A stretch of 34,602 nt of DNA from the NCBI GenBank assembly GCA_011088265.1, contig JAALKB010000013.1:1-34602 (forward strand), written 5' to 3'. Numbering within the stretch: the stretch's first letter is position 1; every line of letters starts with the position of its first letter. The notes below the pieces were generated by a model. The model did no database searches. It was given only the letters and a program-made list of their open reading frames with translations, and was not told the DNA's origin. A program made the position numbers and the translations under genes. This DNA comes from Gammaproteobacteria bacterium. Its GTDB lineage: Bacteria > Pseudomonadota > Gammaproteobacteria > Arenicellales > Poriferihabitantaceae. Shown piece after piece: positions 390-30,487 of the stretch.

Positions 390-667
390 ATGAACATCGA
401 ATCAATCCCTTCTTACCATTGCACTTCCAGTGTGTCCGAAGAGCGGGTCTGTGTGGTGGGGACGACGACCGTGGTCGCAATGATGAACATTGCCGGGAAT
501 GGGTTGAATTCCTACTCCTAAAAATCAGCGCGGCCTTTTGCATTGACATTGCCACTTACGACGTGATGTCCAATCACTATCATGTGATTCTCAACGTAAA
601 CCCTGAACTTGCGAACCCGCTCACCGATGCCGGGGTCATTGAACGATGGGTTCTCCTGAGGCGATGA
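390..667 (+). pseudogene. Remnant of a RAYT/IS200-like (Y1_Tnp) transposase
   Basis: This is a broken REP-associated tyrosine transposase (HUH, Y1_Tnp family). The visible stretch covers the N-terminal core: a YHC motif, then CVRRAGLCG, then the metal-binding HUH segment SNHYHVIL (about 60 codons in), then a VIERW motif. The YHCTS part and the CVRRA part are in different frames. One base is missing near 433 between them. The frame then stops at 665-667, well before the catalytic tyrosine region, and I cannot find the C-terminal half (GRFWEGRFKSQ-type motif) downstream. Intact members are about 200-330 residues and move or maintain REP palindromes. It sits at the left side of the tRNA-Leu island, and an inverted repeat at 9511-9610 could be a non-autonomous relative of such an element. 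It is almost certainly non-functional. Confidence 0.75.
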
Positions 668-990: not shown

Positions 991-1320
991 ATGGCTGACG
1001 TCAAAGCCCTAATCCGTCGGAAAAATATCAACTACATTGAAGTTTCAGCGAATCAAATAGAGTTCTTCGGTTATCAGCTGCTTGAATATCTTTTGGGTCA
1101 AACCACGAGTAACGTGGTTACCCCAGTCAGTGCTGCCCCGTCCTCAAATCGAATTATTCGAGCGAAAGATGTTCAGGAAATGACCGGATTATCCAGAACG
1201 ACGATCTGGCGTCTGGAAAATAAGGGAGATTTTCCGAGGAGAGTTAGTTTGGGAGTAGGGAGTGTGGGGTGGTTGGATGATGATGTGAAAAGATGGATTA
1301 ATAATAGAAATGGTATCTAG
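991..1320 (+). CDS. AlpA-family DNA-binding regulator with N-terminal extension
   Basis: This is a predicted 109-residue transcription regulator of the AlpA/MerR-like phage regulator family. The C-terminal half (about residues 53-109) is the typical AlpA fold: IIRAKDVQEMTGLSRTTIWR is the winged helix-turn-helix, followed by a basic FPRRV strand, a GWL turn and a final acidic/aromatic helix (DDDVKRWI). Residues 1-50 are not part of the usual AlpA domain and I do not recognise them. AlpA proteins in P4-like elements switch on the integrase or excisionase, which suits an element carrying a P4-type integrase at 3541-4773. The start is the first ATG of the frame. No strong Shine-Dalgarno precedes it, so the true start could lie further in. 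It is convergent with gapS4b, with 57 bases between them. Confidence 0.75.
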   Translation: MADVKALIRRKNINYIEVSANQIEFFGYQLLEYLLGQTTSNVVTPVSAAPSSNRIIRAKDVQEMTGLSRTTIWRLENKGDFPRRVSLGVGSVGWLDDDVKRWINNRNGI

Positions 1321-1377: not shown

Positions 1378-2501
1378 TTATCCGTTTATTGGAGCTTTAG
1401 CTCTATATTTCTCGTAGGCTTCCATTTTATTTTCCTCCAAAGACTCCATGATCAGTTTGCTGATGACACTTTTCGTTAAGCCTTCTTCATTAGCTGCAAG
1501 TTTGAGCATAGAGAGATTAAGCGTCAACTCACCACTGGTAGATTCGTCCTTATCAGAAAACTCAAATAATATTCTGCATGTTCCAGAGTAATTGTCTCCT
1601 AGGAGTTCATAATCACATTGCAGGCCAAACAATTGAATATACGGGTGAATGGATTTATCGCTAATGAAGAATGTTGAGTGAAGCCCTTTCCCCTTCATTT
1701 TCATATCCTCGATCTTGTCCTTCATCCAAGCGATATTCGATGGTGGGTTAGAAACATCATGATCCGGAGAGAAGTGGATATCTCTGGTGTCAACAAAACG
1801 CAGAATCGAATGACTCATATTTTGGGTGAGGTCATTCAAAAACTGAACACGTAATTCATTCGTGAAGTCTGCATACCTTATGACTTTTACATTCTCACTT
1901 TGTTTGATATGCCCTTCGCTCTTGAAATGCTTTATCAGAGAGGTAGAAATTTTGTTTCCAAAATCGATAGTTTCGGGCGCAGTGTGACTTAGGGAAATAC
2001 TTAGAGATTTTCCGTCGTTGTTTTTTCTTATTTCAACACGCCCCCCATGCGTAACCGTGTTCTCTCCCCAGTTCTTGACTGGGTCACGTCTATCGATCTC
2101 GAAATCCATGTATATATGATCCGGGTTATCATTAGATGTAGTAAAGTTCGACATCCTCGAAACGGTGAAGACACCAAACTGATCATTCAGTAAGGCCTCA
2201 TAGCTAATTTCCTCTGGTAAAGATTCCAGTAAGTTAGATTCTGAATCCCAGCTAATAGTGCGAGTTTTTGACTTTCGCGACTCTTCCTTGGTCCTGTAAC
2301 TTTCACGCAACTCCACGTACTCAAAGGGAGATAATCCAGTTTTGATGAGAATGGGTCCTAGAACTTCCTTCTGGTCAGACCCGGTAATACGCCTCGTGAA
2401 CGCAAAACATTTTTAAGTTCGGTGTTTTTGACCTTAGTCTGGCCGACTAGCTGACGCAGAAAGTCTCTAGTAGGGAGCAGTACTTCATCGTTATTATTCA
2501 T
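1378..2501 (-). pseudogene. gapS4b: GapS4b-like anti-phage protein, one-base frameshift
   Basis: This is the second gene of a GAPS4-type defence pair. The long frame (2316 to 1378) contains the family signature LLESLPEEI near its start and a lysine/glutamate-rich end. Its true N-terminus lies upstream in another frame: an ATG at 2501 opens MNNNDEVLLPTRDFLRQL and LKNVLRSRG, as in intact GapS4b proteins. At a GGG run (2380-2382) the reading must shift to continue as KEVLGPILIKTGLSPFEYVEL. Without the shift a TAG stops translation at 2358-2360. Adding one G gives exactly 375 codons, a normal family length. The ATG overlaps the gapS4a stop by 8 bases, so translation is coupled. The shift may be a real inactivating mutation, a slippage site or a base-calling error. 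The family assignment is from memory of the sequences. Confidence 0.72.
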
Positions 2502-3444
2502 TACTCATACTCCTGAAATCTGGGCGAAAGCTAACAACTCTTATCCGAGGAAAAATATCACTGTCGAAGCCCGCAGTAGCATTCTTAACTGCATCAGCAT
2601 GATTAGAGTCAACATAATTTGGAAATAGAAACAGCAAACTGCAACTCATGTCTTGAGTGTATTCTTTGGCTGCTTGAATAAGCCTGCGTAAGGAGTCTTG
2701 GGCAAAGTCTTCTATGGTCGCCAAGCAAAAAATATCCTGATCATGCTGGGACTTTGCTTTAATGATGAGCGGAATTAGGGGTGAAGTTAAGAATTCAAGC
2801 GGACACACCTTTCCATATCTCGATATGGTTTTATCAACGTAGCTTAGAGACGTCTCAGGATAATAAAAGTGAAGGCGAGCCGGATCATACTCATGCCTCA
2901 AGTATTTTATCGTGTTGAATATGAAATTTATTCGCTTATTATCAACCACGTGAAATGACTCGAAGTTCCAATCTGGCTCAAGTCGTGAGTTTGCAATTTT
3001 TGATACGATATCATCATATGTATCTTCGTTACTGGATAGCCAGAACAATATCCCTGAATCCCTACTTTTCGTTGTTTTCCCCAAGATTTCCTGTTGCTCT
3101 TTTTTCAGCTCTGAATGTTTGTAACATTCTAGGGTTTCAGCCAAGTCCCTAGCATGGGACTTGAAAGTTGACTTAGGATTGTTCTCGTAAGGATTACCCG
3201 AGTGCTTAACCGAAATTACGGCACTTTCCGCAGTAGATCCTTCAAGAGGGCTTCTATAGCAGTATAAAAAGTCAATTCCATGTGTTTCTCGCCTTTTTTT
3301 CTTTGAGATTTCTCTGGCATGTTTACTCGACTTTCCACAAAGGAGTTTTTGCCCAGATAAGGTGCCTTCCCACCCTATTAGGTGGAAAAAGTTATCAACT
3401 ATATTCTCACCAATTTCTCCAATTCGTTTGGATTTTTCACCCAT
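2494..3444 (-). CDS. gapS4a: GapS4a-like PD-(D/E)XK nuclease of a GAPS4 defence pair
   Basis: This is a 316-residue protein that I recognise as the nuclease partner of the GAPS4 anti-phage system, described in work on Gamma-Mobile-Trio elements. The N-terminal half resembles a PD-(D/E)XK endonuclease. GEIGENIVDNFF forms the first helix, GIDFLY (about residues 57-62) supplies the acidic residue, and VISVKHS (about 77-83) is the E/QxK-like strand, with serine in the first position as in relatives I recall. The rest is a family-specific region with no known motif. A weak AGGA lies a few bases before the ATG. It overlaps gapS4b by 8 bases and the two must be co-expressed. The expected role is DNA degradation on infection, in the cytoplasm. 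It is intact here, unlike its partner. Island location supports a defence role. Confidence 0.75.
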   Translation of the reverse strand: MGEKSKRIGEIGENIVDNFFHLIGWEGTLSGQKLLCGKSSKHAREISKKKRRETHGIDFLYCYRSPLEGSTAESAVISVKHSGNPYENNPKSTFKSHARDLAETLECYKHSELKKEQQEILGKTTKSRDSGILFWLSSNEDTYDDIVSKIANSRLEPDWNFESFHVVDNKRINFIFNTIKYLRHEYDPARLHFYYPETSLSYVDKTISRYGKVCPLEFLTSPLIPLIIKAKSQHDQDIFCLATIEDFAQDSLRRLIQAAKEYTQDMSCSLLFLFPNYVDSNHADAVKNATAGFDSDIFPRIRVVSFRPDFRSMSNE

Positions 3445-3540
3445 TACACATTCCTATAACCAAGCTGCGGATTTTTATTTCATACATAACTATAAATATA
3501 CCCTATATCTACCCGAAAATACCGATTGACTTTTCTTGCA
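3445..3540 (-). promoter_or_regulatory. AT-rich promoter region of the gapS4ab cassette
   Basis: The 96 bases between the integrase stop and the gapS4a start are very AT-rich, with several TATA-like hexamers on the minus strand. This is the only room for a promoter of the pair. No single -35/-10 pair stands out enough to call. Confidence 0.35.
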
Positions 3541-4773
3541 TCAAGTTGAACAATGGTACTGATAGTCCTGCACTCCTGCTTTTTCAACTAGATAATCAGC
3601 CCCCCACTGCATCATCTCTTTACGTTCTTCAAGGTAATGCGCGTGATGGATGTACGCGGCTCTCACACCATTTCTCTCTGAATGGGAGAGCTGTCTCTCA
3701 ATAGCATCAGGATTGAAGCCTTTTTCATTGAGAACTGACGAAGCATTCGCTCGAAAGCCATGGGGTGTGGCATGAGACTTTCCTTCGGTTTTTCCATCAT
3801 ATCCCATACGGATCATAGCCCTTCGCATCGTATTATCGGATATACATTCGTTTCGATTTCGCTCTGATGGAAAAAGGAGCTCGTATTGCCAAGTGATGGA
3901 TTTTATCTCATCCAATATTCTGATCACTTGAGAAGATAACGGAACGAGATGCTCACTCTGCATTTTCATACGATGCGCTGGAATTCTCCAAATTTGATTT
4001 TCGAGATCAAACTCCGACCACTGAGCCCCTCTAACCTCACCTGGGCGCACGAAAGTAAATATCAGCATTTCTAGGGCCAACTGGGTAAGGAGCCTACCCT
4101 TGGTTTCGTAGCCCTTCAGATCCACTAGAAATTGTCCGAGCTCTTCCACTGGAAGTGATGCTCTATGCCGCTGAATTCGTGGTTTAAGAATACCTGTTAA
4201 CTCACCCACTGGGTTATGATCTATTTTCCCATTCTGTACACCATAGCGAAAAACTCGGCGGATGTCCTGCAAGACTCTGGAAGCAACGTCCAAAGCATCT
4301 CGAGATTCTACTTTTCGGATAATCGCTAATATGTCCCGAGGTTCGATTTTTTCCATTGGTTGCAAATCCATTTCCTTGAACGCATTGTCTTTAATTCGCT
4401 TCCACAAACGTTGAGCATGATCCTCCGTCCATGTACCTTTTTGGTACTCCCACCATTCGAGGGCAAGCACCGAAAACTGGGTTCCGTTTTCGAACAGTGC
4501 TCGTCGCTTCTGTATCTGTCGTTCTTTTGATGGATCAACCCCTTGAGAAATCTGCAGCTTTGCCTGCTCCCGTTGAAGTCGCGCTTTTTTCAAACTGACA
4601 TCTGGATAAATACCTAGAGCTAGCGTTTTCTGCTTGTTAGCAAAACGATACTTCAGTCGCCAATATTTCGAACCATTGGGTTTTACAAGTAATCGTAGTC
4701 CCCTCTCGTCGTTAAGCCAATAGTCTTTTTCTTTTGGCTGGGAACGCTTTATTTCCAGGGCTGTGAGCGGCAT
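3541..4773 (-). CDS. P4-type tyrosine integrase of the tRNA-Leu element
   Basis: This is a site-specific recombinase of about 410 residues that inserts and excises the element at the adjacent tRNA-Leu gene. The N-terminal DUF4102 arm-binding domain is seen in LNDERGLRLLVKPNGSKYWRLKY-type sequence and LALGIYPDVSL. A SAM-like core-binding region follows, then the catalytic domain: Arg in FVRPGEVRGAQW, the HGFR box (His and second Arg), and the nucleophile region AAYIHHAHYLEERKEMMQWGADYL, whose AAY tyrosine fits the family position. I place the start at the ATG at 4773 (MPLTALEIK), the normal P4-integrase start. The frame stays open further upstream but that part is not conserved. All catalytic residues are present, so it should be active. 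It lies 150 bases from the tRNA in the same orientation, so tRNA operon read-through could add expression. Confidence 0.93.
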   Translation of the reverse strand: MPLTALEIKRSQPKEKDYWLNDERGLRLLVKPNGSKYWRLKYRFANKQKTLALGIYPDVSLKKARLQREQAKLQISQGVDPSKERQIQKRRALFENGTQFSVLALEWWEYQKGTWTEDHAQRLWKRIKDNAFKEMDLQPMEKIEPRDILAIIRKVESRDALDVASRVLQDIRRVFRYGVQNGKIDHNPVGELTGILKPRIQRHRASLPVEELGQFLVDLKGYETKGRLLTQLALEMLIFTFVRPGEVRGAQWSEFDLENQIWRIPAHRMKMQSEHLVPLSSQVIRILDEIKSITWQYELLFPSERNRNECISDNTMRRAMIRMGYDGKTEGKSHATPHGFRANASSVLNEKGFNPDAIERQLSHSERNGVRAAYIHHAHYLEERKEMMQWGADYLVEKAGVQDYQYHCST

Positions 4774-4820
4774 TTTGGTGCTACAAATTTGAATTGAACC
4801 GAGATAGCACCACTTTTCAT

Positions 4821-4918
4821 GAAAAAGCAAGAAACGGGGTGAAACAGCATGAAACAAAAAGAGAGATAAAATCGTTTAAAAACAAGGCACTTAGAAACGA
4901 TTTGAAACAACCTGAAAT
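4821..4918. repeat. Helically phased GAAAC repeats beside the attachment site
   Basis: GAAAC or near-GAAAC units start at 4821, 4831, 4841 and 4851, and again at 4894, 4904 and 4914, each exactly 10 bases apart. The second cluster ends 7 bases from the tRNA 3' end. They lie in the integrase leader between the integrase start and the tRNA. That is where P4-type elements keep arm-type integrase sites and excisionase sites, so they are good candidates for these. Confidence 0.6.
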
Positions 4919-4925
4919 GGAGAAA

Positions 4926-5012
4926 TGGTACCCGGGGCCGGACTTGAACCGGCACGATGTTGCCATCGAGGGATTTTAAGTCCCTTGCGTCTACCAATTC
5001 CGCCACCCGGGC
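4926..5012 (-). tRNA. leuZ: tRNA-Leu(UAA), integration site
   Basis: The 87-base gene reads on the minus strand from GCCCGGG to CCCGGGT-A-CCA, with the CCA encoded. The anticodon loop CTTAAAA gives anticodon UAA. A long variable arm (CGATGGCAACATCG) is typical of class II tRNAs. It is the last of three tRNA genes after pgsA, matching E. coli leuZ. The 3' end faces the integrase, so this is the attB half of the junction. Confidence 0.96.
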
Positions 5013-5142
5013 AAGGGGTTTTTGTACAGAGGCTTGGTAAGGCCTAGCGTTGCTTTGGAGGGGCTTTCCTGTTTATATCTCTTTTTTATATCTCTTTGAA
5101 AGCACGGCAACGATTCTGATGGACAACGGTCTTATTGAGATA

Positions 5143-5216
5143 TGGAGGCTGAGCCCGGAATCGAACCGAGGTCAACGGCTTTGCAGGCCGCTGCATAACC
5201 ACTCTGCCACTCAGCC
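5143..5216 (-). tRNA. cysT: tRNA-Cys(GCA)
   Basis: This is a 74-base cloverleaf on the minus strand. The acceptor stem GGCTGAG pairs with CTCAGCC, followed by T and an encoded CCA. The anticodon loop CTGCAAA gives GCA, and the T-loop GGTTCGATTCC is present. It is the middle tRNA of the Gly-Cys-Leu trio. Confidence 0.96.
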
Positions 5217-5361
5217 ATCTGTTTTAATGACTGTTACATCGCGATGGATTCTAGCATTACTCGCTACCAATCGCACACAAAACAAAGGACGTTATTCCCA
5301 ACTGAAACCCAATGACGGTATCAATAAAGGGACTAATCAAAAACACTGCCTTTGATAGACA

Positions 5362-5391
5362 AAAGCCCGGCCATAACGATGACTGGGCTTT
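5362..5391 (-). terminator. Hairpin between tRNA-Gly and tRNA-Cys
   Basis: The arms AAAGCCC and GGGCTTT pair across a loop of about 16 bases, and the minus strand reads on into TTTTG. This could be a weak intrinsic terminator or a processing hairpin in the tRNA transcript. The long loop makes full termination doubtful, which would allow the downstream tRNAs to be transcribed. Confidence 0.4.
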
Positions 5392-5398
5392 ATAAATT

Positions 5399-5473
5399 TG
5401 GAGCGGGAAACGAGATTCGAACTCGCGACCCCAACCTTGGCAAGGTTGTGCTCTACCACTGAGCTATTCCCGC
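5399..5473 (-). tRNA. glyW: tRNA-Gly(GCC)
   Basis: This 75-base gene on the minus strand has acceptor GCGGGAA paired with TTCCCGC, encoded CCA, anticodon loop TTGCCAA giving GCC, and a standard T-loop GTTCGAATC. It is the first tRNA after pgsA, as in the E. coli pgsA-glyW order. Confidence 0.96.
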
Positions 5474-5554
5474 AGCCCTCATTTCGAGAGGGGAGTAGAT
5501 TCTAGTCAACGAGCGCTGACTGTCAATAGAAAAAGGTGTTTTTTTCTGAAAAAA

Positions 5555-6133
5555 TTAGCTTTTTTCCCGCAGGAAAGACTTCGCCGCCCGCAAGTATACC
5601 CACATGGACCACAAGGTCAAAATAGCTGCAATATAGAAGGCGATCTCGCCGATGATAAATATCGGCAACCCCATAATGGGCTTCGCATATAACAAAAGAC
5701 TAATCGCAACCATCTGAAAAACGGTTTTGATTTTTCCGATAGGTCCAACGGCAACGGCGCCTCGCTCTCCGAGCTCCGCCATCCACTCCCTTAAAGCCGA
5801 AATCACGATTTCCCGGCCAATAATAATACAGGTTGCGATAGCGAATGGGATTGGGTGAAAAACCCGACCTAAGGTAGAAAGGTCAGACACCAATAACACC
5901 AGGGCAGTGGAAACAATCAGCTTGTCTGCAACGGGATCCAGAAATGCGCCTAATGCAGAAACCGCATTCATTTTTCTGGCAATATAGCCATCTAGCCAAT
6001 CGGTAATCGCAGCGAGTACAAAAATACCTGTGATCAATAACTCCCGATTAGCCGAGGGCCAAAAATACATAACGACAAATACGGGAATCAGTGCGATTCG
6101 CAATAAAGTCAGTATGTTAGGAATATTTAGCAT
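5555..6133 (-). CDS. pgsA: CDP-diacylglycerol-glycerol-3-phosphate 3-phosphatidyltransferase
   Basis: This 192-residue inner-membrane enzyme joins glycerol-3-phosphate to CDP-diacylglycerol to make phosphatidylglycerol-phosphate, the first committed step to phosphatidylglycerol and cardiolipin. The CDP-alcohol phosphotransferase motif DGx2ARx8Gx3Dx3D is complete (DGYIARK, then GAFLDPVAD, about residues 48-71). Hydrophobic segments before and after fit about five or six membrane helices. The MLNIPNILTLLRI start is typical of the family, and an AAGGAAA Shine-Dalgarno sits just before the ATG. It follows uvrC by about 60 bases on the same strand and leads into the tRNA trio, the classical arrangement. 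Confidence 0.97.
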   Translation of the reverse strand: MLNIPNILTLLRIALIPVFVVMYFWPSANRELLITGIFVLAAITDWLDGYIARKMNAVSALGAFLDPVADKLIVSTALVLLVSDLSTLGRVFHPIPFAIATCIIIGREIVISALREWMAELGERGAVAVGPIGKIKTVFQMVAISLLLYAKPIMGLPIFIIGEIAFYIAAILTLWSMWVYLRAAKSFLREKS

Positions 6134-11918: not shown

Positions 11919-12265
11919 GGCATCCTCCTTAAGGTTAAGGTCTAAATTGCCCCAACAATCTCTGTAATAACCCAAACTACCAGGCTCGAGAAGAGTTATT
12001 GATAAGGACAACTAATTAGTATTGGATGCGAAACTTCGGCTGTCGCCTCACGGGGTGGTCGCAACCCCATAGACCAGATTCTCGATCAAGCCGGATAGCT
12101 TGTCAACATGTTCCTGGCATGACGACTTCCCGAAACCACGGCGAGAGATCAGATCCAATTACCAAATCAGGATTACCGGTTTAATCTGGTCTTATGAAAA
12201 ACTAATTCAAATGAATTGAAATGAACTGATCGGAGTTAAATTTAAGGAGAGAAAAGTATTGTTTC
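11919..12265. other. Intergenic stretch upstream of chrBA
   Basis: It holds the chrB leader with its strong AAGGAGG and, further up, the end of the DUF3726 operon. I see a small dyad AATTCA-AA-TGAATT near 12206-12219 but no convincing -35/-10 pair and no intrinsic terminator with a T-run. Confidence 0.4.
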
Positions 12266-14762: not shown

Positions 14763-15060
14763 TGTGGGTTTCCCGGGAATGACTGTTAAGAGATTGGGGA
14801 GCAATTATCCAGATCATCATTTTATTTCGCTGTTTATGCGACTGCCTATCTCGCCATCAATGTCGCCGTTTTAACACAGGAATGGTCCTGGCGTCAGTCA
14901 CCAGTAAGACATTGTGGGAATATTAATGAGGAATGGCTGTAATAGCCGTTGTTGACCAGAAGCACCATTATTCGGACGAAGAAAGTGGCATGACGATAAT
15001 CACGCAAGGGGGTTTCAACACAATCCCATGATAAAAACAGAAAATCAGGAGACAGGAGAA
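14763..15060. other. Intergenic stretch between rnpB and the 573-residue gene
   Basis: No gene is seen. It must contain the 3' end signal for rnpB and the promoter for the gene at 14762, both on the minus strand, but neither an obvious hairpin plus T-run nor a clean promoter is visible. Confidence 0.4.
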
Positions 15061-15455
15061 GTGGGAGTTGGCCGATAAGCCGGGTTCTGTCGAGAACAGT
15101 CATTCATCTGGGATGTCTGTCGCCAGACACCTCTAGCAACCTACCCGGATCCAACATGGGCCATGTAAAGGATCCCTATTCGGTCTTGCTCCAGGTGGGG
15201 TTTACCCTGCCAATGCTGTTGCCAGCATTGCGGTGCGCTCTTACCGCACCATTTCACCCTTACTTCAATTACCCCAGGCAATTATCCCGGGATAAAAAAG
15301 CGGTATATTTTCTGTGGCACTTTCCGTCAGCGTTAACTGCCCAGGCGTTACCTGGCACCCTGCCCTATGGAGCCCGGACTTTCCTCCCCGTATCATAAAA
15401 TCTGGTCGTAAAACCGGACATCACAACACAGAGCGACTGCTTAGCCAACTCCCGG
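15061..15455 (-). ncRNA. rnpB: RNase P RNA, bacterial type A
   Basis: This is the catalytic RNA that matures tRNA 5' ends. The minus strand contains the universal GAGGAAAGTCCGGGCTCC near the 5' side, the AGGGTGCCAGGTAACGCCTGG type loop after it, a GGTAAACCCC region, and ACAGAACCCGGCTTATCGG near the 3' end. The P1 stem is clear: GGGAGTTGGC (15444-15453) pairs perfectly with GCCAACTCCC (15063-15072), setting both ends. Location next to rsmI is the usual gammaproteobacterial one. Confidence 0.96.
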
Positions 15456-15459
15456 CGCG

Positions 15460-15488
15460 AGACTACGCTAAACATCTGACAATTACAA
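15460..15488 (-). promoter_or_regulatory. Probable rnpB promoter
   Basis: On the minus strand, TTGTAA (15483-15488) and TAGTCT (15460-15465) are spaced by 17 bases. The GC-rich CGCGCCG lies between the -10 and the first base of P1. The GC discriminator is typical of stable RNA promoters. Position relative to the RNA start is right. Confidence 0.6.
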
Positions 15489-15583
15489 ACACCTGAGCCA
15501 TTAATTCTCATTCCCTGTTTCTGGACTTGTTTCTGGATTCGGTTCTGTTTTCCTTGCAGACATGTGTTGGATCTACTTCCAAT

Positions 15584-16442
15584 TTAGACCTGGTCATTTT
15601 CCCGCTTCATGGAAAGCCCAGCTTTGTAAAGCTGGTTACGGTTGCAATTAAGCGCTTCAGCGGCGATTTCACTGGCCCTTTTCAGCGGCATATGATCGAT
15701 TAGCTGACTAAGGAGATGAGCTGCTTTTTCAAAATCTTCATCTGAACCAAAGGTCGCTCCGCTCACGACAACAACGAACTCGCCTTTTTGGTTCATGGGA
15801 TCTTCTTCCAGCTGAGCCAGAACTGAATCGGGACTGCCGTAGTAGAAAGTTTCGAATCGTTTGGTGATTTCTCTGCCAACGGACAGGTTTCTTTTTTCTC
15901 CAAGACAACGGCCAATTGCTTCAATGCAGGCCATGATACGATGGCTGGATTCATAAAAGACCAGGGTTCGGGGCTCTTTTTTTAACTCACCAAGACGTTG
16001 GTCGCGGCCATGTGGTTTGGCCGGCAAAAACCCCTCAAAGCAAAAGCGATCAGTGGCAAGACCACTGGCGGAGAGTGCGGCAGTAACGGCACAGGGGCCG
16101 GGGATGGGGCTCACGGGGATTCCATGGATAACGGCCTCCGGAAACCAACCGATAACCAGGATCACTGATTAGCGGTGTTCCTGCATCACTGATTAATGCC
16201 ACATCTTTCCCATCCTGCAATTGTCGGATTACGCCATGGACCTGGTTTTGCTCATTATGTTCATGGAAGGATCGGGTAGGGGTGGAAATAGAATAATGAG
16301 AGAGCAGGATACCTGCATGACGGGTATCTTCTGCAAGAATCAGACCAACCTGACCCAACACATCCAGTGCCCGCTGACTTATATCTTTGAGATTACCGAT
16401 GGGCGTCGCCACCACATAGAGCGTTCCAGTGTCATTATTCAT
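15584..16442 (-). pseudogene. rsmI: 16S rRNA 2'-O-methyltransferase RsmI, one-base frameshift
   Basis: RsmI methylates C1402 of 16S rRNA using SAM. The first frame (16442 to about 16140) has the start GTLYVVATPIGNLKDIS, the LAEDTRH box and ISDAGTPLISDPGYRLV. The second frame continues EAVIHGIPVSPIPGPCAVTAALSASGL, FEGFLPAK, VFYESSHR and the C-terminal domain NRNQLYK. The join needs removal of one base in the CCGG at about 16138-16141. The corrected gene has 286 codons, the normal length. In this sequence the product would be cut after about 130 residues. The whole remaining protein looks normal, so a base-calling error or a very recent mutation is likely. It is divergent from lpoA, as in other gammaproteobacteria. 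Confidence 0.88.
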
Positions 16443-28818: not shown

Positions 28819-30487
28819 TTACTTAAACCACCAGCGTTCAGCATTCTTTCCGCCGTCCAGCTCCCAGTTGTTTCCAACCACTTCGGGTACTTCGAGCTTA
28901 TCGTTATATGCCATAACATCACTCTGGAACAATGGGAGACATACACCACCTTCATCATGCACGATGCGTTGCATCTCTACGTAGATTTCCCGACGCTTGC
29001 CGGTATCAAGTTCAGCGCGGCCCTGAATGAGTAATTCATTAAATCGATCATGTTTCCAGTAGGTGTCATTCCAACTGGCATCCGCTGCATAGACCTTGGG
29101 AGAACATCCAGTTTTCGGTGGGACGACCACTCCAATAACAGGCACTAAATGCTTTTTGCATCCAGACATTCGACCAATATCCATCATCTGGCTCGCGGAT
29201 AACCTCAATATCAATTCCCGCTGGTTTGGCTGACTCTCGCATAAGCTGACCGGCATCTACCGCACCGCCAAAACCCGTGTCCGCCGCATGGAACTGGATA
29301 GAAAGACTATCCAGCCCTGCTTGCTTGAGATGGTATTTGGCTTTATCGGTATCGTACTCCCGCTGAGGAATCTCATCAGTAGTGGCTCGATAAATGTTAG
29401 CTGGACCAATGGGGCTATCGTTGCCAATCTCACCGTATCCATAAACCACTTTTTCCAGCCACTGCTGACGATCAACAATATGCTTAACGGCTAAACGGAC
29501 GTGATTATTATCAAACGGTGCCGTATCCGTTCGCATTGGCAATGTTACCTGTTTGTTACCGGTTGTCGCCTTAATATTGATGCCCGGCAATTTTTTCATT
29601 CTATCGATTGTTTTTACTTCAACGTTGTTCATACAATCAATCGCGTCAGTCCGAAGTGCATTACTCCTAGCGCTTGGGTCAGCAATTTGCAACGTTTCGA
29701 TTTCATCGAAATGGGCCATTCCCTCTTTCCAGTAATTTGGATTGCGCACAGTAAATGTTCGAACTCCCGGATCATTCTCAGTCAAAACGTATCCACCGGT
29801 CCCAACACCCGACTGCCAATCAATGGTTCCGTCTCCATTGGAAGGGCAAATATTGAGGTGATAATCACTCATCAGAAATGGGAAGTCCGCATCTCCGCCG
29901 GAGAGCGCGATTACAACCGTGTGGTTGCCGTCAGCTTTTACACTCTCTATGCCACTTAGAATACCTTTTGCAGCGGAGGTAGAACCTTCACCCAAATGGT
30001 GATTTATGGAATCAACCACGTCTGCCGCGGTCAGGGACTTACCGTTGTGGAACTCGACACCCTTGCGGATCTGGAAAGTCCATGTTTTTGCATCTGCCGT
30101 TGCATCCCAACTTTCCGCCAGCTCGGGAATCAACTCACCGCTGGCAGCTACTTCAGTTAGACCATTGCGTACCTGTCCAAACTGCACGTTCAGCATATAA
30201 AGGTCAAGAATCTGACCTGGATCCAGGATATCACTGGTCGAGTCACCAGTTAATCCAATACGAAGACGCCCGCCTTTTTGGGGAGTTGCGGCCTCTGCAC
30301 GAGATAGCAAGCCCGACGCTGCGGTCATTGAAACACCCAACGCCACTGCTCCCATCATGAAACTGCGCCGAGACATCTCTCCCTGCTCAAAACTGTTTTG
30401 CAGCATTTTTACTTTTTCTACCTGTTCTCGATCTGCTATCCCTAGCGAAAGATCAATAGGTTTTAGCAGGTTAAACTTTCTGAACAT
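28819..30487 (-). pseudogene. Peptide ABC transporter substrate-binding protein, one-base frameshift
   Basis: This is a periplasmic SBP_bac_5 binding protein (OppA/DppA type). The N-terminus is a Tat signal: SRRSFMMGAVALGVSMTAAS with the twin Arg at residues 40-41, cleavage after AEA. The binding domain begins GGRLRIGLTGDSTSDILDPG. The frame runs to about 29100 then breaks. The C-terminal part (VYAADASWNDTYWKHDRFNELL to GNNWELDGGKNAERWWFK) continues in another frame. Removing one C from the CCC run at 29098-29100 rejoins them as MFSKVYAAD and gives 556 codons, a normal length. An AGAGGA precedes the start. The rest of the sequence shows no decay, so an error or fresh mutation is likely. It is divergent from its cognate permease genes. 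Confidence 0.88.

What the first reader, a model, noticed from the sequence alone, without database searches (positions are those of the whole stretch)
1378..3444. GAPS4-like anti-phage pair carried by a tRNA-Leu integrative element
A PD-(D/E)XK-like nuclease gene and its overlapping partner match, from memory, GapS4a and GapS4b. They sit alone between an AlpA-like regulator and a P4-type integrase at a tRNA. I see no Gamma-Mobile-Trio genes here, so the pair appears to travel on a different kind of element from the one in which it was described. The 8-base overlap of the two genes argues for fixed stoichiometry.
Basis: partly seen in the sequence, partly recalled or inferred. Interest (0 to 1): 0.6.

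Follow-up and report, generated by a model that had tools for sequence, protein, structure and literature searches.

The report
GAPS4 anti-phage pair beside tRNA-Leu integrase
This is a known two-gene bacterial anti-phage system (GAPS4), carried next to an integrase at a tRNA gene; it is an ordinary new copy, its second gene is out of frame in this draft assembly, and its structure models hint that a DNA-binding protein works together with a DNA-cutting one.

Summary
The 316-aa product of 3444-2494(-) scores 348 bits against NCBIfam GapS4a (cut-off 270). The downstream frame (2316-1378) scores 304 against GapS4b (cut-off 300) even without its N-terminus, which lies in another frame from ATG 2501, so gapS4b is broken as assembled. 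Intact homologues align across both pieces. Conserved genes in this draft (rsmI, a redoxin-like gene) show the same kind of break against an intact congener, so an assembly error is at least as likely as real inactivation.

The pair is the only cargo between an AlpA regulator and a P4-type integrase adjoining tRNA-Leu(TAA). No GmtY exceeds cut-off anywhere in the genome. The element's left end is lost at the contig edge. A congener has the same integrase (about 86% identical) at the same tRNA without the pair.

Non-GMT carriage is not unusual: of 32 other GAPS4-bearing genomes or records, two have GmtY, apparently unlinked. Others lie on plasmids or in prophage tail modules. Overlap length varies and says nothing about stoichiometry.

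New lead: GapS4a models as a PD-(D/E)XK nuclease with invariant E13, D58, S78 and K80. GapS4b models like RdgC/Iml3/CENP-L, suggesting a DNA-binding, possibly encircling, sensor.

The parts
2494..3444 (-). gapS4a: 316-aa PD-(D/E)XK-fold protein, GapS4a family
   Evidence: NF047933 348.5 bits, cut-off 270; model pLDDT 85; matches McrC, AF1548, EndoMS/NucS, FokI
1378..2501 (-). gapS4b: gene with one frame break between about 2415 and 2360; N-terminal piece read from ATG 2501, remainder in another frame
   Evidence: both pieces align with intact homologues L006/L015 and L038
1378..2316 (-). open 312-aa part of gapS4b, covering the whole RdgC/Iml3-like core
   Evidence: NF047934 304.1 bits, cut-off 300, profile 56-355
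2494..2501 (-). 8-base overlap of gapS4a end and gapS4b start
3541..4857 (-). P4-type tyrosine integrase (438 aa as read from the TTG; exact start uncertain)
   Evidence: PF13356, PF22022, PF00589; PRK09692-like, no GmtY match; 86% identical protein at the same tRNA in G001
991..1320 (+). AlpA-type regulator
   Evidence: PF05930 62.4 bits, cut-off 21
4926..5012 (-). tRNA-Leu(taa), presumed attachment site
   Evidence: no second copy of its 3' end in the window
419..667 (+). remnant of an IS200-like (Y1) transposase, below the curated cut-off; decayed flank
   Evidence: PF01797 17.4 bits, cut-off 23

Best explanation
The locus is a GAPS4 anti-phage operon carried as cargo, directly beside the integrase, of a P4-type integrative element inserted at tRNA-Leu(TAA). 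Shown: family membership of both genes, gene order and overlap, conserved candidate active-site residues, the integrase/AlpA/tRNA setting, and the frame break in gapS4b as assembled. Inferred: GapS4b is a DNA-binding, possibly DNA-encircling, protein with an RdgC/Iml3-like fold that recognises phage DNA or its replication intermediates and licenses the PD-(D/E)XK nuclease GapS4a to cut DNA, stopping the infection. In this strain the system works only if the frame break is an assembly error or if translation restarts inside gapS4b.
For: Both proteins exceed curated NCBIfam cut-offs, and relatives recovered independently match the same two families: all 25 GapS4a and all 24 GapS4b rows. E13, D58, S78 and K80 are invariant in 25 GapS4a proteins. 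The GapS4a model (pLDDT 85) matches PD-(D/E)XK nucleases McrC Z 8.9, AF1548 Z 8.7, EndoMS/NucS Z 7.8-8.0, FokI Z 7.4. The GapS4b model's top matches are RdgC Z 9.4 over 223 residues and Iml3/CENP-L Z 9.2. Integrase, AlpA and tRNA. The same integrase sits at the same tRNA in a congener without GAPS4. Frame breaks in rsmI and a redoxin-like gene relative to intact orthologues make an assembly error plausible.
Against: gapS4b is out of frame as assembled. There was no activity test and no read data. GapS4b has no sequence-level link to RdgC (hhalign probability 0.1%; no PF04381 match). Foldseek ranked no RdgC in its top 50, and Z 9.4 is only modestly above the stated background of 7-8. The distal end of the element was not found.
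Confidence: 0.85

Rival explanations
1. The pair is a real, recently inactivated relic: gapS4b lost its frame in vivo and the locus no longer defends.
For: The frame changes within gapS4b between about 2415 and 2360, with no canonical -1 slippery heptamer seen in that stretch (sequence printed). The left flank is decayed, with a transposase remnant.
Against: 312 codons after the break remain open and still pass the family cut-off, and gapS4a is intact. rsmI and a redoxin-like gene in the same draft are similarly broken while intact in the congener, pointing to indel errors in the assembly.
Confidence: 0.4
2. gapS4b is expressed as a shorter protein from an internal start (for example GTG 2316), giving the RdgC-like core without the N-terminal helical domain, so the system is altered rather than dead.
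For: The open 312-aa frame covers nearly all of the RdgC/Iml3-like core, model residues 74-366.
Against: All 23 relatives in the alignment carry the N-terminal region. No convincing ribosome-binding site precedes GTG 2316.
Confidence: 0.08
3. The integrase is a long-resident gene of this genus and the GAPS4 pair was inserted beside it separately, so the two do not move together.
For: G001 has the 86% identical integrase at the same tRNA, and similarity ends inside the integrase's 3' end. GAPS4 is absent from G001.
Against: AlpA on the other side and the position directly beside the integrase fit normal element cargo. G001's contig breaks 213 bases past its integrase, so its element cannot be compared.
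Confidence: 0.3

Closest known systems
GAPS4 (GapS4a/GapS4b; NCBIfam NF047933/NF047934), described from Gamma-Mobile-Trio islands (Mahata et al. 2024, doi 10.1038/s41564-024-01840-5; text not held here, association from memory)
   Same: Both protein families above cut-off, same gene order, near-zero spacing, same conserved residues
   Different: Vehicle is a P4-type integrase/AlpA element at tRNA-Leu, not a GMT island; gapS4b out of frame as assembled
P4-type satellites and genomic islands with integrase-adjacent defence cargo (Rousset et al. 2022 hotspots, from memory)
   Same: P4-type integrase at a tRNA-Leu, AlpA-family regulator, defence genes next to the integrase
   Different: psu, sid, delta, alpha and cos are not in the visible 4.9 kb; the contig ends before the rest of the element
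GAPS4 in prophages and plasmids found here (L038, L035, L037; Pantoea and Ewingella plasmids L007, L008)
   Same: gapS4a-gapS4b pairs; L038 is the closest relative at 57% identity (GapS4a)
   Different: Prophage copies sit among tail genes; plasmid copies near transposase or recombinase genes; no P4-type integrase detected in any of these loci
RdgC (E. coli ring-shaped DNA-binding protein) and Iml3/CENP-L
   Same: Predicted GapS4b fold, best matches over residues 74-366
   Different: No detectable sequence similarity; GapS4b has an extra N-terminal helical region of about 70 residues

Membership tests
GAPS4 | GapS4a protein above curated cut-off | tested here: met
   348.5 vs 270 bits
GAPS4 | GapS4b protein above curated cut-off | tested here: met
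   304.1 vs 300 bits from the open 312-aa part alone
GAPS4 | Adjacent co-directional gapS4a then gapS4b | tested here: met
   8-base overlap; 11-base overlap to 4-base gap in relatives
GAPS4 | PD-(D/E)XK nuclease fold with conserved candidate active-site residues in GapS4a | tested here: met
   Fold matches; E13, D58, S78, K80 invariant in 25 proteins
GAPS4 | Both genes intact | tested here: inconclusive
   gapS4b frame broken as assembled; draft shows similar breaks in conserved genes
GAPS4 | Protection against phage | not testable with these tools
   Needs a bench test
Gamma-Mobile-Trio island | GmtY recombinase | tested here: not met
   NF040693 best 22.8 bits vs cut-off 340 in the whole genome, on another contig; the window integrase has no GmtY match
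Gamma-Mobile-Trio island | GmtX and GmtZ | not tested
   Not searched for by model; no unexplained gene lies between AlpA and the tRNA
P4-type integrative element | P4-type tyrosine integrase adjoining a tRNA gene | tested here: met
P4-type integrative element | AlpA-family regulator | tested here: met
   PF05930 62.4 bits
P4-type integrative element | Second attachment site flanking the element | tested here: inconclusive
   No copy in the window; in the genome, a 24-base probe with up to 3 mismatches finds only this tRNA and one other tRNA-like match; contig ends at base 1
P4 satellite phage | psu, sid, delta, alpha primase, cos | tested here: inconclusive
   None in the visible 4.9 kb; the rest is off the contig
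RdgC family | PF04381 sequence match | tested here: not met
   No match at E up to 1 in 24 GapS4b rows; hhalign probability 0.1%

The most novel reading that the evidence does not exclude
GAPS4 is a two-part machine in which GapS4b forms an RdgC-like DNA-encircling ring, sharing its fold with kinetochore Iml3/CENP-L, that detects phage DNA and hands it to the PD-(D/E)XK nuclease GapS4a, whose second half is a degenerate nuclease-like (RPB5-like) domain.
Probability: 0.25. Interest if true: 0.6.

Novelty: new member of a known kind. Interest (0 to 1): 0.3.

Why it matters
It adds a P4-type tRNA island to the plasmids and prophages that carry GAPS4, showing that GMT islands are one of several carriers. 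The structure models suggest a testable mechanism: an RdgC/Iml3-like DNA-binding partner plus a PD-(D/E)XK nuclease. No solved structure of either protein was found by sequence.

Tried and rejected
PADLOC gave no GapS4 match, although NCBIfam did; I take this as absence of such models in that 2023 library. Pfam alone gives nothing useful for either protein. A single-protein scan of genome contigs found no relatives, while an alignment query found 26 loci. Programmed frameshifting in gapS4b was considered and set aside: no canonical slippery heptamer was seen by eye in the overlap zone, and relatives encode one continuous frame. A second attachment site was sought in the window, in the genome and near the hpt gene that follows tRNA-Leu in G002; none was found. 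An apparent multi-frame ORF at 15163-15750 was discarded because most of it lies over rnpB RNA. The split ABC-binding-protein gene at 28819-30487 was not used as evidence, since G001 also appears broken there. The GapS4b viral fold search gave nothing below E 0.001. GapS4a halves and GapS4b lobes show no sequence-level internal repeat. Papers describing GAPS4 itself are not in the held library.

Full report
Observation. The window is one whole contig (C198, 34,602 bases) of a draft genome of 4.17 Mb in 317 contigs (contig length). On the minus strand, 3444-2494 encodes 316 aa without interruption, and 2316-1378 is a 312-aa ORF. The expected start of the second gene is ATG 2501, which overlaps the end of the first by 8 bases. 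That frame ends after 47 codons, while the frame that carries on to 1378 is a different one. AlpA lies at 991-1320(+), a P4-type integrase at 4857-3541(-), and tRNA-Leu(taa) at 5012-4926(-).

Identity. NCBIfam scores GapS4a at 348.5 bits (cut-off 270) and the open part of GapS4b at 304.1 bits (cut-off 300). All aligned relatives also match those two families.

Frame break. Homologues L006/L015 and L038 encode one continuous GapS4b, and both pieces in the window align with them. Compared with the same-genus genome G001, rsmI in this contig is also split between frames while G001's copy is whole. A redoxin-like gene on another contig of this genome is split likewise. The draft therefore carries frame breaks in conserved genes, and the gapS4b break may well be an assembly error. 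It could also be real; no reads are available.

Vehicle. The integrase carries Arm-DNA-bind_3, Phage_int_M and Phage_integrase domains and no GmtY match. GmtY's best hit in the whole genome is 22.8 bits against a cut-off of 340. In G001 an integrase 86% identical in protein sits at the same tRNA. DNA similarity stops within its 3' end, the following sequence is unrelated, and that contig ends 213 bases past the integrase. G001 has no GapS4a. In G002 the tRNA is followed by ordinary chromosomal genes and no integrase was matched there. No second attachment-site copy was found, so the element's extent is unknown; its left 1 kb is decayed.

Distribution. GapS4a is rare: in a class-wide sample only this genome and one other of 369 match. 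The other one's contig length and locus coincide with L015, an uncultured Ectothiorhodospiraceae bacterium, which places this genome in Gammaproteobacteria. An alignment search found 26 genome loci in Pseudomonadota, Bacteroidota, a Desulfobacteraceae genome and Enterococcus, four viral contigs and two plasmids. Of these 32 genomes or records, two contain GmtY above cut-off. Judging by coordinates, neither GmtY lies beside the GAPS4 pair: in Halomonas the positions do not coincide, and in Enterovibrio it would collide with gapS4b if it were on the same contig. The closest relative, L038 (57% identity for GapS4a), sits in a prophage between a tape-measure-like gene and a tail-tube-like gene. 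L035 sits between a tail-fibre-assembly-like gene and a sheath-like gene, which recalls the P2 Z/fun defence hotspot (from memory, not tested). Gene names for the prophage neighbours are my reading of the translations. No P4-type integrase was detected near any other GAPS4 locus, so this particular vehicle is new in the sample, but carriage outside GMT islands is not.

Overlap. Spacing between the genes in relatives runs from an 11-base overlap to a 4-base gap (a few starts reassigned by me to the ATG that aligns with relatives). This fits co-translation but does not show fixed stoichiometry.

Structure and mechanism. The GapS4a model (pLDDT 85, pTM 0.85) matches PD-(D/E)XK enzymes over its first half: McrC Z 8.9, AF1548 Z 8.7, EndoMS/NucS about 8, FokI 7.4. 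Its second half resembles the RPB5 jaw domain (RNA polymerase subunit E entries), Z up to 8.4. E13, D58, S78 and K80 are invariant in 25 sequences, fitting an E...D...SxK active site; their assignment as catalytic is inferred. The GapS4b model, made from the intact L038 protein (pLDDT 80.6, pTM 0.69), matches RdgC (Z 9.4, 223 residues, rmsd 4.9) and Iml3/CENP-L (Z 9.2) across residues 74-366. From memory, these folds are already known to resemble each other, which makes the coincidence more credible. There is no sequence support and Foldseek did not list RdgC among its best 50, so this is a lead only. The mechanism I favour is DNA recognition by GapS4b followed by DNA cleavage by GapS4a.

Verdict. 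An ordinary new member of GAPS4 on a P4-type tRNA-Leu element, with an unresolved frame break and a modest structural lead.

Noticed in passing
window 15584-16442 (-): rsmI is split into two overlapping frames, whereas the same-genus genome G001 has it whole (283 aa); points to indel errors or gene decay in this draft.
   Followed up: yes
window 28819-30487 (-): An ABC-transporter substrate-binding protein gene is split between frames; G001 appears broken at a different position of the same gene.
   Followed up: partly
L071 (G000:C186) 3308-5653: A second P4-type integrase beside tRNA-Leu(gag) in the same genome, with a stop inside, followed by an AlpA-like ORF; a 199-aa ORF occurs identically on both sides, overlapping a direct repeat of 300 bases.
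   Followed up: partly
window 15060-15452 (-): RNase P RNA (rnpB, class A), 329 bits.
   Followed up: no
window 12001-12073 (-): chrB-a RNA motif just above its gathering score, upstream of chromate-resistance-like genes.
   Followed up: no
L052 1-63: In G001 the contig end beside the integrase reads like the C-terminus of a transposase, so an IS may lie next to its integrase.
   Followed up: no
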